Source: a virus
DNA: 64,000 nt
Virus record (IMG/VR): IMGVR_UViG_3300024308_000188
Location: 62,001 to 126,000 of that record
Reading direction: 5' to 3' (one strand)
Made by a program: the position numbers and the translations under genes. The notes beneath the pieces are model-generated. The model saw only the letters and a list, made by a program, of their open reading frames with translations. It made no database searches and was not told where the DNA came from. Positions within the stretch are counted from its first letter, which is position 1. Every line of letters begins with the position of its first letter. This document shows positions 61,141-64,000 of the stretch, piece after piece.

Positions 61141-61200
61141 GTTGTCGTAGGTAAATCGGACGTCCCAACCGGAACAAGGAGAGTTCCACCTTTATTATAG
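61141..61200 (+). ncRNA. Intergenic hairpin element
   Basis: GGAAC (61171-61175) pairs with GTTCC (61183-61187); the loop contains AAGGAG. Outer AGGT/ACCT pairing is weak. Lies before the gene at 61211. Confidence 0.35.
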
Positions 61201-61210
61201 GAATCTTAAA

Positions 61211-61552
61211 ATGTTGCAACAATTATCTGTTCAAATTGATCGTGCCTCTTTAAATGCAAAGCTGGTGTTGGCTCGTAAACAAGTTTCTGATCTCATTACT
61301 TTTGCCGAAGATCATTTTGATCTTAGTTACGATTCTACTATTTCAAATGTTAAAACACGTTTGAAAGAAAGTACGGCAAACTTAAAACTGGATCAATTGG
61401 TCGGCTACATTGAAGAGTTGATCCAGCACCGCGATAACATTCTTATCTGCATAGACGAGCGCTCAGAGGAAACTGTAAATCGTATATCAAAGCTGGATAG
61501 TTTGTTAGATAATTTCGGATTACCAAAACTGTCGGCTAAAAAGTCATCTTAA
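61211..61552 (+). CDS. Small helical hypothetical protein
   Basis: 113 residues, helical, preceded by AGGAATCTTAAA. No recognised motif. A copy of ACTGTAAAT (61472-61480) lies inside the coding sequence, upstream of the cloverleaf element. Confidence 0.6.
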   Translation: MLQQLSVQIDRASLNAKLVLARKQVSDLITFAEDHFDLSYDSTISNVKTRLKESTANLKLDQLVGYIEELIQHRDNILICIDERSEETVNRISKLDSLLDNFGLPKLSAKKSS

Positions 61553-61688
61553 AAGTTTTGCTGGTGCGGAAATGTTAGGTAATTTAAACATAACTTACTC
61601 AGTTTGTTATTACACTCACAAGGCTTTTGGTTTAGGGGTGAAAGTAGAACATTAAACCTGAACTTCTAGCTTTCCGCACCAGCACTTT
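61552..61688 (+). ncRNA. Candidate cloverleaf RNA (13-bp closing stem)
   Basis: GCTGGTGCGGAAA (61560-61572) pairs perfectly with TTTCCGCACCAGC (61671-61683); AAAGT (61552-61556) and ACTTT (61684-61688) extend it past a 3-base bulge. Inside are three arms: GTAAT-AACA...TGTT-ATTAC (61579-61613), CACTC/GGGTG (~61613-61640) and TAGAA/TTCTA (61645-61668). Too large for tRNA; no ORF. No known family recognised. Confidence 0.55.
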
Positions 61689-61704
61689 ATTAAGGTACAC
61701 TCAA

Positions 61705-62127
61705 ATGAAACCTATAGTTTTAGTAAATAGTAAAAAGTTTTTAGAACAACTTGGTGACGTAAGTGCCAGTTTAAAAGTCAACAAAAATATTTTTACTCAC
61801 CATGTTCCATCTGATCCAACAAAAGATTTTATTTTGTTGGTTCCACAGAATTATTCATTTCTTACCGTGCAGGCTCACAGTATCAGTGGAGCAACAGATA
61901 TTTTCTACACAGCTTCTGATATAAAACTTGCAAATATTCCTGATCTTCCGGCTGATGGAGGAATACAGGAAAAATTTATTACAGCCGATTGGATGTTATC
62001 TGATCTGCTTACCGGAATTCCAGCTGGTGAAACTAAAATGGAATCCATTGAACATCTTGTAACAGCAGTTAAGATAGTCACAACTGGCGAAGCCCGTATA
62101 GTTCTGTCTATCAAAGACAGTATATAA
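61705..62127 (+). CDS. Small hypothetical protein
   Basis: 140 residues, alpha/beta, no motif (starts MKPIVLVNSKKFLEQLGDVS). AAGG lies 9 bases upstream of the ATG. Follows the cloverleaf element directly. Confidence 0.6.
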   Translation: MKPIVLVNSKKFLEQLGDVSASLKVNKNIFTHHVPSDPTKDFILLVPQNYSFLTVQAHSISGATDIFYTASDIKLANIPDLPADGGIQEKFITADWMLSDLLTGIPAGETKMESIEHLVTAVKIVTTGEARIVLSIKDSI

Positions 62128-62524
62128 ATTTCCCTGACCTGCCAAACTTTGCATGTATTTGTTTGGCAACTAAACTCAGGAACTGGATTGTGTCTGCGCT
62201 ACATCCTTTCCGATAGTTTGTGTAAGAATTTCTTACGGTCTTTTTTATTTCGGCACTCTAGCGTCCTCTAAGTGCTGTTTCTGGTCGCAAGACTGGTTTT
62301 ACAAAACAAGCTTATTCGTTTGCATCGACATGCGAGATACGTGAGTAGCTGTCATGAGAAATTCTTTGTTTTGTATTAGCGCCACCGAATCTGATTGGCG
62401 ATCTGATCACGTTTATCAAAGCATATAAGATAGATGGTTATAGTGTAATGCTTTCCACTAGAAGCTGTTTGTTGAAATTGCTTTTCAGTGACTTTCCATG
62501 TTTCAACAGGTAAACATGGTTAAT
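62128..62524 (+). ncRNA. Structured intergenic region with several hairpins
   Basis: ~400 bases, no ORF. Pairs seen: CCTGA/TCAGG (62133-62137, 62176-62180) around TGCCAAAC/GTTTGGCA; GTAAGA-ATT-TCTTAC (62222-62236) followed by GGTCTTTTTT (terminator-like); CGGCACT/AGTGCTG (62251-62277); ACAAAACAA/TTGTTTTGT (62301-62309, 62366-62374); CGCCA/TGGCG (62380-62400); AAAGCAT/ATGCTTT around TATAA/TTATA (62418-62454); CCATGTTT/AAACATGG (62496-62519). Confidence 0.5.
62222..62246 (+). terminator. Terminator-like hairpin
   Basis: GTAAGA, loop ATT, TCTTAC, then GGTC and six T. Confidence 0.5.
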
Positions 62525-62613
62525 GCGGGTATCGTATAAAGGCTATTACCTCAGCCTTCCAAGCTGATGATGTGGGTTCGATTCCCATTGCCCGCTCCAT
62601 TTTCAACAGGTAA
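62501..62613 (+). repeat. 13-bp direct repeats 100 bp apart flanking tRNA-Gly
   Basis: TTTCAACAGGTAA at 62501-62513 and again at 62601-62613, on either side of the tRNA. The first copy is in the loop and 3' arm of a hairpin; the second supplies the ribosome-binding site of the next ORF. Confidence 0.7.
62525..62599 (+). tRNA. tRNA-Gly (anticodon TCC)
   Basis: 75 nt with 7-bp acceptor GCGGGTA/TGCCCGC (one G-U), anticodon arm TCAGC-CTTCCAA-GCTGA giving TCC, T arm GTGGG-TTCGATT-CCCAT, U discriminator and encoded CCA. Reads GGA codons. The only tRNA found in the window. Confidence 0.92.
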
Positions 62614-62618
62614 CAAAA

Positions 62619-62702
62619 ATGCTTCCAGATTATTCAGAATTAAAACCCTATCTGCTTTCTCTTGTTTTAGTTTTTGTTATTTTGATTGCGCTTAGTTTTT
62701 GA
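62619..62702 (+). CDS. 27-residue single-span membrane peptide
   Basis: ATG at 62619 with AGG upstream. Product: MLPDYSELKPYLLSLVLVFV then ILIALSF, one hydrophobic helix and a short hydrophilic start. Could be a small holin-like or inner-membrane phage peptide. Too short for family assignment. Confidence 0.5.
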   Translation: MLPDYSELKPYLLSLVLVFVILIALSF

Positions 62703-62832
62703 TTCCAACACTAAACTTATTTCAGTTAGCTAAGTAACTTAAGATAGTCCTGCACTTAGCCGCGTAGGAGACTATGAAAAGTTTGTGGTTTAAGTGTATC
62801 ACTGAACAGGAATCTTTATTTGGTAATCATTT
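62703..62832 (+). ncRNA. Nested hairpin leader before the 110-residue gene
   Basis: TTCAGT/ACTGAA (62721-62726, 62801-62806) encloses ACTTAA/TTAAGT (62737-62742, 62790-62795), which encloses ATAGTC/GACTAT (62744-62749, 62770-62775). No ORF; ends 26 bases before the next ATG. Confidence 0.5.
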
Positions 62833-63165
62833 ATGGAACCAGAGTTTTTAAATTGCCCTGAATTTTATTCTAAACATTTTCTTGAACTTAACAATAAAGA
62901 AAAATTCTGCGCTTTTTATTGGAGTCAGATGCGAAGATTTACAACGCTTAAGCAAGCTTTAACTTCTTTACCTGCAAATAGAATACCTTACAGATGCGCT
63001 TTAATTGTTTTGCGCGAAAAGAAATGTCGTTGGCCTGAAGTAGAATTCTTGATAGCCCAAACTTCTTACTCAAAAGGTTTGTATTTGAATTACATGAAAA
63101 TTTTAGTTGAACGAAACCAATTGACTACAGAAGAATTTGAAGATATTTTGAATATGTTAAAGTAG
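62833..63165 (+). CDS. Small hypothetical protein
   Basis: 110 residues, helical, charged (SQMRRFTTLKQALTSLPANR), three Cys. No clear ribosome-binding site, but composition is typical of a coding sequence. Its stop codon overlaps the first arm of the next structured element. Confidence 0.6.
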   Translation: MEPEFLNCPEFYSKHFLELNNKEKFCAFYWSQMRRFTTLKQALTSLPANRIPYRCALIVLREKKCRWPEVEFLIAQTSYSKGLYLNYMKILVERNQLTTEEFEDILNMLK

Positions 63166-63324
63166 ATTCCACTTTAGATCTGCAAGCAGAGACATTTTTT
63201 GTCTTAGGTCAGAACAGCCGTTGCTTGTGCGCTGGTATGCAGTGCAAAGTTTATTATGTCAAGCTAGATCCCTTGACTAGACTTTATACGAAGTAGCCTA
63301 ACTTCGAGATTTTTAGTGGAATCT
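63164..63324 (+). ncRNA. Candidate multi-branch RNA closed by a 10-bp stem
   Basis: AGATTCCACT (63164-63173) and AGTGGAATCT (63315-63324) are perfect partners. Inside are TCTGC/GCAGA (63179-63190), AGACA-TTTTT-TGTCT (63190-63204), TCAAG/CTTGA (63259-63276) and CGAAGT-AGCCTA-ACTTCG (63289-63306). No ORF. Confidence 0.55.
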
Positions 63325-63726
63325 CCTTTAACATCTTTGTCTGTTCGATCTCCTTTTAGGTACGTGGGGTTCCAAGCAAGTTGTGTCGAACAGGCATTCT
63401 AATTTTTCGCGGCATTAGTTTAAGCAGTCCTTGAAAAAGTTTTGTGTGAGGCGGATTCTTCCTTGCCGCTGTGCTGATGAACTTATAGAGGAAAAACAAC
63501 GAGACAATACTTGCGTCCCTCCAAGTCGGTTAGTATTGTGAGTATCTCACGCACTCATTCGTTATTTCAAAACATGAACGTGCTGACGCGAACTCCCGCT
63601 GAGAGTACAAACCTTAATCTAGCATTAAGCAATGTTTAGACTTTGAATTGTTGTAGGTTTTTGGACTTTTTTCCTTGCTCCAATTCTTGGGTCGTGTATT
63701 TGAAATGCCGCTATACAGGAATATTC
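63325..63726 (+). ncRNA. Hairpin-dense non-coding stretch
   Basis: 11-bp stem TGTCTGTTCGA/TCGAACAGGCA (63338-63348, 63386-63396); GCGGC/GCCGC (63409-63469); ACAATACT/AGTATTGT (63504-63511, 63532-63539); GTGAG-TAT-CTCAC (63538-63550); CTTAAT-CTAGC-ATTAAG (63613-63629). No credible ORF. Confidence 0.5.
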
Positions 63727-63924
63727 ATGGTAACTATATTCATCTTTTTTCTAACGATTTGTATTAACCGCGAAAACAATTTACGGCGGTCATCCGTAGA
63801 AAGTTTTCGTATAACAACTAACATTCAACGCATAACAGATTACTTTGACCTTAAAGGTTGGTTAACTGTTCGCGTTGTACAAGTTGAGCATAAACCTGCT
63901 CACTATAAGCACTCGTTGATATGA
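63727..63924 (+). CDS. Small membrane-anchored hypothetical protein
   Basis: 65 residues from the ATG at 63727 (AGGA, 7-base spacing). An N-terminal hydrophobic segment (MVTIFIFFLTICI) is followed by a soluble basic tail. A longer frame from 63643 has no ribosome-binding site and runs through the hairpin region. Could be a signal-anchored protein. Confidence 0.5.
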   Translation: MVTIFIFFLTICINRENNLRRSSVESFRITTNIQRITDYFDLKGWLTVRVVQVEHKPAHYKHSLI

Positions 63925-63932
63925 TGCTTGGC

Positions 63933-63983
63933 GATTTGTTATTTACATGACTCCTTATCTTGTTGAGAGGGTAAGAACAAATC
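63933..63983 (+). ncRNA. Hairpin element at window end
   Basis: GATTTGTT (63933-63940) pairs with AACAAATC (63976-63983); CTTATC/GGTAAG sits inside. Likely continues the structured series beyond the window. Confidence 0.45.
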
Positions 63984-64000
63984 TCGGTAGCCGTAATACC

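What the first reader, a model, noticed from the sequence alone, without database searches (positions are those of the whole stretch)
61141..64000. Series of structured non-coding elements alternating with short ORFs and a tRNA
Every intergenic gap from 61.1 kb onward contains long perfect inverted repeats (6-13 bp), while gaps elsewhere in the window mostly hold simple terminators. The elements differ in sequence but share the design of a closing stem around inner hairpins. This is close to how large phage RNAs such as GOLLD or ROOL sit near tRNA genes, but I cannot match a known family. It may be a set of undescribed RNAs or one transcript processed into parts.
Basis: partly seen in the sequence, partly recalled or inferred. 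Interest (0 to 1): 0.8.

Follow-up and report, generated by a model that had tools for sequence, protein, structure and literature searches.

The report
Phage tRNA-linked cluster of structured RNAs
A stretch of this giant phage's genome probably makes one transcript in which tiny genes and a tRNA are separated by folded, non-coding RNA segments; related phages keep the folds at the same places while changing almost all the letters, so these look like real, undescribed phage RNAs whose job is still unknown.

Summary
Three elements clearly are: E1 (61559-61684, 14-bp closing stem), E5 (63151-63337, 36-nt arms) and, just past the window edge, E8 (64071-64177), whose 21-bp perfect stem (27 bp with G-U) is the longest short-span inverted repeat in the 214-kb record. 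The phage is a PaBG/Lu11/NCTB-group jumbo myophage. Five other phages of the group (a near relative aside) keep the layout. At two orthologous sites, after ORF-a and before the final intrinsic terminator, a long closed stem occurs in 11 of 11 cases, beyond all or all but one of 300 shuffles, with unrelated arm sequences. Non-coding sites differ less between two near relatives than third codon positions of the interior ORFs. A middle/late promoter-like motif at 61470 and a terminator at 64184 suggest a 2.7-kb transcription unit. No Rfam family matches except tRNA; it is not GOLLD or ROOL by model. Best mechanism: one transcript segmented by host RNase III and RNase P into mRNAs, tRNA and stable ncRNAs. 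Transcription and processing are inferred, not shown.

The parts
61211..61552 (+). ORF-a, 113 aa; homologues in L009, L010, L011 and NCTB, each followed within 6-17 nt by a closed stem
   Evidence: stems
61470..61480 (+). AAACTGTAAAT, promoter-like motif (same as annotated Lu11 'putative middle/late promoter' CTGTAAATA); likely start of the transcription unit
   Evidence: 12 exact copies in the record, all co-oriented with genes, against about 0.4 expected from base composition (own estimate); same motif near the 3' end of ORF-a in L009, looser copy between ORF-a and tRNA-Met in L010
61559..61684 (+). E1: 14-bp perfect closing stem around 98 nt with inner hairpins
61705..62127 (+). ORF-b, 140 aa, no known family; similar short ORF at the same place in L009 and L010 by eye
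62128..62524 (+). E2-E3: ORF-free segment between ORF-b and tRNA, conserved between near relatives but not significantly structured (z -1.8)
62525..62599 (+). tRNA-Gly (TCC), close to enterobacterial tRNA-Gly
62619..62702 (+). possible 27-aa hydrophobic ORF (ORF-c)
   Evidence: sequence
62703..62832 (+). E4: ORF-free segment, weak structure (z -0.9)
62833..63165 (+). ORF-d, 110 aa, no known family
63151..63337 (+). E5: closed multibranch element, 36-nt arms 81% complementary
   Evidence: z -7.7
63338..63396 (+). hairpin 'Y': 12-bp stem; GGGGTTCCA..GC in the loop is shared with L009 near 15.0 kb and loosely with L010 near 13.6 kb, whose stems differ
63397..63726 (+). rest of E6: ORF-free segment, not significantly structured (z of the whole E6 about -0.9)
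63727..63924 (+). ORF-e, 65 aa, hydrophobic N-terminus; C-terminal HKPAHYKxSL shared with an L009 ORF by eye
63925..64000 (+). E7 (continues to about 64067), followed outside the window by E8 at 64071-64177, intrinsic terminator at 64184-64205 and the thymidylate kinase gene at about 64232

Best explanation
61470-64205 is one phage transcription unit, expressed from a middle/late phage promoter and ended by an intrinsic terminator just before the thymidylate kinase gene. It carries short ORFs and a tRNA-Gly separated by structured non-coding RNA modules. The long closing helices are most likely cut by host RNase III, as the stalks of pre-rRNA are, and RNase P trims the tRNA. This cuts the transcript into mRNAs, tRNA and excised, nuclease-resistant non-coding RNAs that build up during infection. 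Shown here: folding, purifying selection, conserved positions with changed arms, promoter-like motif and terminator, sense-strand preference. Inferred: transcription, RNase III cleavage, accumulation and any function in trans.
For: Folds beyond shuffles for E1, E5, E7, E8 and for counterparts in five other genomes. At 11 of 11 orthologous sites (after ORF-a in 5 genomes, before the terminator in 6) the best stem beats all or all but one of 300 shuffles, with unrelated arms; E8-type elements of three genomes share CATATTAC beside a hairpin. NCTB and L011 share an alignable 19-22-bp closed element with compensatory and G-U-type changes. The sense strand folds better than the antisense (25 of 36 segments; Wilcoxon p 0.0009). 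Between near relatives non-coding sites differ at 11/1545 (0.71%) against 3.1% of third codon positions of three interior ORFs (p 0.001) and 4.5% over seven local ORFs. Promoter motif at 61470 and terminator at 64184; no early promoter inside. Stem lengths of about 19-33 bp in E8, L009, L010, NCTB, L011 and L029 fit RNase III substrates (own knowledge).
Against: No RNA-seq. E2-E3, E4 and E6 have no significant fold, so selection there may be for something else. E1's stem (14 bp) is short for RNase III. The phage record encodes no RNase III by Pfam model, so a host enzyme must be assumed. Few independent homologues, so no R-scape-grade covariation. Part of the segment may lie in a recently exchanged, low-divergence stretch (tmk has no difference).
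Confidence: 0.5

Rival explanations
1. The elements act only in cis: intercistronic structures that protect mRNA 3' ends, space ribosomes or tune translation of the short ORFs, with no free RNA product; E8 plus terminator may attenuate thymidylate kinase.
For: Elements fill the space between a stop codon and the next start (E1 starts 6 nt after the ORF-a stop and ends 20 nt before ORF-b); E8 and a terminator stand directly before tmk in three genomes, leaving only a few tens of nt for any promoter of tmk's own.
Against: Several elements are far larger than such a role needs (L009 300 nt, L010 330-360 nt); L011, NCTB and L029 keep the final element and terminator before other genes; a rigid closing stem is a poor riboswitch expression platform.
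Confidence: 0.28
2. Part of the region (E5 to E8, about 1 kb) is one large ornate RNA of the GOLLD/ROOL kind acting in trans, perhaps as an oligomer.
For: About 1 kb of nearly ORF-free DNA beside tRNAs in several genomes; a comparable ORF-less ICP1 transcript is that phage's most abundant RNA (PMC7567579).
Against: No Rfam match; a 65-aa ORF with a conserved C-terminus interrupts the region in the window and L009; folds are locally closed rather than global.
Confidence: 0.12
3. DNA-level elements: inverted repeats serving replication, recombination or packaging, or relics of mobile elements with terminal inverted repeats.
For: Perfect inverted repeats with unlike interiors also describe miniature transposable elements (the ICP1/PLE paper raises this for another phage RNA).
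Against: No second copy in the record or in the near relative; no target duplication by eye at E8; sense-strand preference and G-U pairs; position tied to promoter motif, tRNA and terminator.
Confidence: 0.06
4. Mostly chance: the short repeats are noise and only a few intergenic hairpins are real.
For: Counts of stems of 10 bp or more are ordinary; E2-E3, E4 and E6 are not significant.
Against: E1, E5, E8 and their counterparts are far beyond shuffles; non-coding sites are constrained.
Confidence: 0.04

Closest known systems
GOLLD and ROOL large phage RNAs
   Same: Large structured non-coding RNAs in phages, often near tRNA genes (PMC12286853)
   Different: No match to the Rfam models; here a chain of separate closed elements split by ORFs, with almost no sequence conservation between phages
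ICP1 abundant ORF-less transcript (about 800 nt)
   Same: About 1-kb ORF-free phage region, no described family (PMC7567579)
   Different: ICP1 has no tRNAs; its transcript is shown by RNA-seq, ours is not; sequences not compared
Stable RNAs encoded inside the T4 tRNA cluster (own knowledge)
   Same: Non-tRNA stable RNAs co-transcribed with phage tRNAs and released by processing
   Different: T4's are small and few; no sequence comparison was made beyond Rfam
RNase III processing stalks (pre-rRNA, T7 early mRNA; own knowledge)
   Same: About 20-30-bp helices closing a structured RNA or separating cistrons
   Different: Cleavage not shown here; interiors are not rRNA

Membership tests
GOLLD RNA | Match to the Rfam covariance model, conserved 3' region | tested here: not met
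   No GOLLD match at gathering or permissive thresholds
GOLLD RNA | Encoded in phage or prophage near tRNA genes | tested here: met
   tRNA-Gly at 62525; jumbo phage genome
GOLLD RNA | Single RNA, often over 800 nt | not testable with these tools
   Needs RNA-seq; ORF-e interrupts the 1-kb region
ROOL RNA | Match to the Rfam covariance model | tested here: not met
ROOL RNA | Forms homo-oligomeric cage, very abundant | not testable with these tools
   Experiment needed
Intrinsic terminators | Short G+C-rich hairpin with small loop followed at once by a T-run | tested here: not met
   E1, E5 and E8 enclose about 53-140 nt and lack a following T-run; the real terminator is separate at 64184-64205
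tmk leader riboswitch or attenuator | Aptamer with alternative pairing to a terminator before the regulated gene | tested here: inconclusive
   Element plus terminator precede tmk in three genomes but other genes in L011, NCTB, L029; alternative pairing not analysed
Structured RNA (general) | Compensatory base changes in homologues | tested here: met
   7 of 42 pairs with both sides changed, two sequences only; 11 orthologous closing stems with unlike arms; sample small, no R-scape
Mobile inverted-repeat element | Multiple copies or target duplication | tested here: not met
   Single copy in G000 and no second copy in G001

The most novel reading that the evidence does not exclude
A new class of modular phage RNA locus: a transcript pre-divided by RNase III-type stalks into several unrelated large non-coding RNAs that act in trans on the host (for example as stable decoys or scaffolds), where the architecture and element positions are inherited but element sequences turn over almost completely between related phages.
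Probability: 0.2. Interest if true: 0.8.

Novelty: new variant of a known kind. Interest (0 to 1): 0.52.

Why it matters
Large phage RNAs near tRNA genes are a known puzzle without a function. Here a group of jumbo phages keeps a whole series of structured elements in what looks like one transcription unit, with positions conserved and sequences replaced. That offers a natural covariation data set and a testable processing model, and it shows why sequence-based RNA catalogues miss such loci.

Tried and rejected
Rfam at gathering and permissive thresholds found only tRNA plus weak chance hits. A DNA search of phage records showed only matches at the tRNA among the listed rows. ORF-b has no homologue in phage records by tblastn. 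Scans with the Nudix-like ORF, tmk and a DNA motif gave no further relatives of the island; a GTDB genome scan with UvsX found none. RNase III and RNA ligase (PF14622, PF09414) are absent from the record by Pfam model. MAFFT could not align elements X (E8) and Y across the three diverged genomes, so no covariance model was built. Counts of short repeats were rejected as evidence. Terminator, mobile-element and DNA-repeat readings were rejected as argued above. PaBG and Lu11 annotations show no comparable large gap right after UvsX; the Erwinia and Dickeya relatives examined have some gaps of several hundred nt there by my ORF model, but no long closing stem in them.

Full report
What the segment is. 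The window is bases 62001-126000 of a 214.5-kb virus record. The genome is a jumbo myophage: UvsX with an intein, closest named relative phage NCTB (UvsX 60%), of the group the PaBG paper calls Lupandier (PaBG, Lu11, NCTB, Dickeya and Erwinia phages; PMC7412058). The finding lies downstream of UvsX and a Nudix-like gene and upstream of thymidylate kinase. The window cuts it: the mostly ORF-free region goes on to about 64231, with tmk starting near 64232.

The observation. My ORF model gives 93% coding for the record; the gap 63166-64231 is its largest and 62128-62832 its fourth largest. I tested structure rather than repeat counts. Five perfect stems of 10 bp or more in the segment is a number that 10% of 3.1-kb windows reach, so short repeats alone prove nothing. 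But the longest perfect short-span inverted repeat in the whole record is E8 (21 bp at 64071-64177) and E1 (14 bp) ties for third. Fold z-scores: E1 -4.5, E5 -7.7, E7 -3.2, E8 -8.1; E2-E3 -1.8, E4 -0.9, E6 -0.9. So about half of the named elements are individually structured. A closed element also occurs in a minus-strand gap at 42295-42574, so the contrast with the rest of the window is not absolute.

Selection. Record G001 (L002's contig) is about 97-98% identical here. In the five island segments 11 of 1545 sites differ (0.71%), against 42 of 935 third codon positions in seven local ORFs (4.5%, p 8e-10) and 10 of 318 in three interior ORFs (3.1%, p 0.001). The two genomes are mosaic and tmk shows no difference, so part of the low divergence may come from exchange; the interior comparison is the safest.

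Relatives. A UvsX scan gave L009 (UvsX 93%), L010 (73%), L011 (60%) and L029 (50%) besides the near relative. All of these, and NCTB, have ORF-poor stretches with long closed stems near UvsX, mostly with tRNAs. PaBG, Lu11 and the Erwinia and Dickeya phages examined lack a comparable set. ORF-a of the window has homologues in NCTB, L009, L010 and L011, each followed 6-17 nt later by a closed stem. In six genomes the island ends with a closed element and an intrinsic terminator (for the window, for L010; by eye in L009, L011, NCTB and L029). For these 11 sites the best stem was as good in 0 of 300 shuffles (10 sites) or 1 of 300 (one site), and the arms are unrelated in sequence. For L010 the top-scoring stem in its final gap is a neighbouring hairpin at 14360-14403; the element corresponding to E8 (14420-14529) scores the same. 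E8 and its counterparts in L009 and L010 share CATATTAC next to an inner hairpin, with different closing helices. NCTB 17837-18076 and L011 11456-11683 align: 42 consensus pairs, 7 with both sides changed, and a G-U to A-U change in the long stem. Two sequences give limited power.

Strand and transcription. The sense strand folds better than its complement in 25 of 36 segments (Wilcoxon p 0.0009). Lu11 is annotated with putative middle/late promoters that lie in AAACTGTAAAT. AAACTGTAAAT occurs 12 times in this record, always along the genes, against about 0.4 expected from base composition (my estimate); one copy is at 61470-61480 near the end of ORF-a, with a like copy in L009 ORF-a and a looser one after ORF-a in L010. 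NCTB, L011 and L029 have the close variants AAACTGTAAAC or AAAGTGTAAAC within the island, in several cases just before an element or tRNA. Early-type promoters (GTGTCAAAAATAG to TATAAT) lie only downstream of tmk. With the terminator at 64184-64205 this outlines a 2.7-kb unit. No transcript has been observed.

Mechanism. Closing helices of about 19-33 bp around multibranch interiors, separating stop codons, tRNA 5' ends and start sites, look like RNase III stalks. I therefore propose one transcript cut into mRNAs, tRNA and stable non-coding RNAs by host RNase III and RNase P. The phage has no RNase III by Pfam search. Cis-only regulation is the main rival; one giant GOLLD-like RNA and DNA-level repeats are less likely.

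Known families. No Rfam family except tRNA matched in the window, its continuation or the relatives at a credible score, even with permissive thresholds. GOLLD and ROOL resemble it in setting only (PMC12286853); ICP1 has a similar-sized ORF-less abundant transcript (PMC7567579). I found no paper on these RNAs in this phage group, within an open-licence library only.

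Noticed in passing
window 56674-59556: UvsX recombinase gene carries an intein with a LAGLIDADG endonuclease domain.
   Followed up: no
L006 18498-18570, 19226-19350; L011 12380-12453, 11694-11831; L029 11378-11475: tRNA-like sequences with acceptor and T arms but odd or enlarged middles, missed by ARAGORN; one pair shares 27 identical nt between NCTB and L011 (weak tRNA-Sec score).
   Followed up: partly
G000 127644-161721 (window 65644-99721): Repeated early-type promoter GTGTCAAAAATAG ... TATAAT, about eight good copies, all on the + strand downstream of tmk.
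   Followed up: partly
window 42295-42574, minus strand: Another closed structured element in a gap outside the segment, z -5.8.
   Followed up: no
G000 1-107310 versus the rest: G000 and G001 are about 99-99.5% identical over about 107 kb and 97-98% elsewhere, which points to recombination.
   Followed up: no
window 45018-45890: 873-nt low-coding gap with a long homopolymer run, no clear ORF or fold; possible assembly problem.
   Followed up: no
L003 10308-10988: FliA/WhiG-like sigma factor gene downstream of the island, with few relatives in phage records.
   Followed up: no
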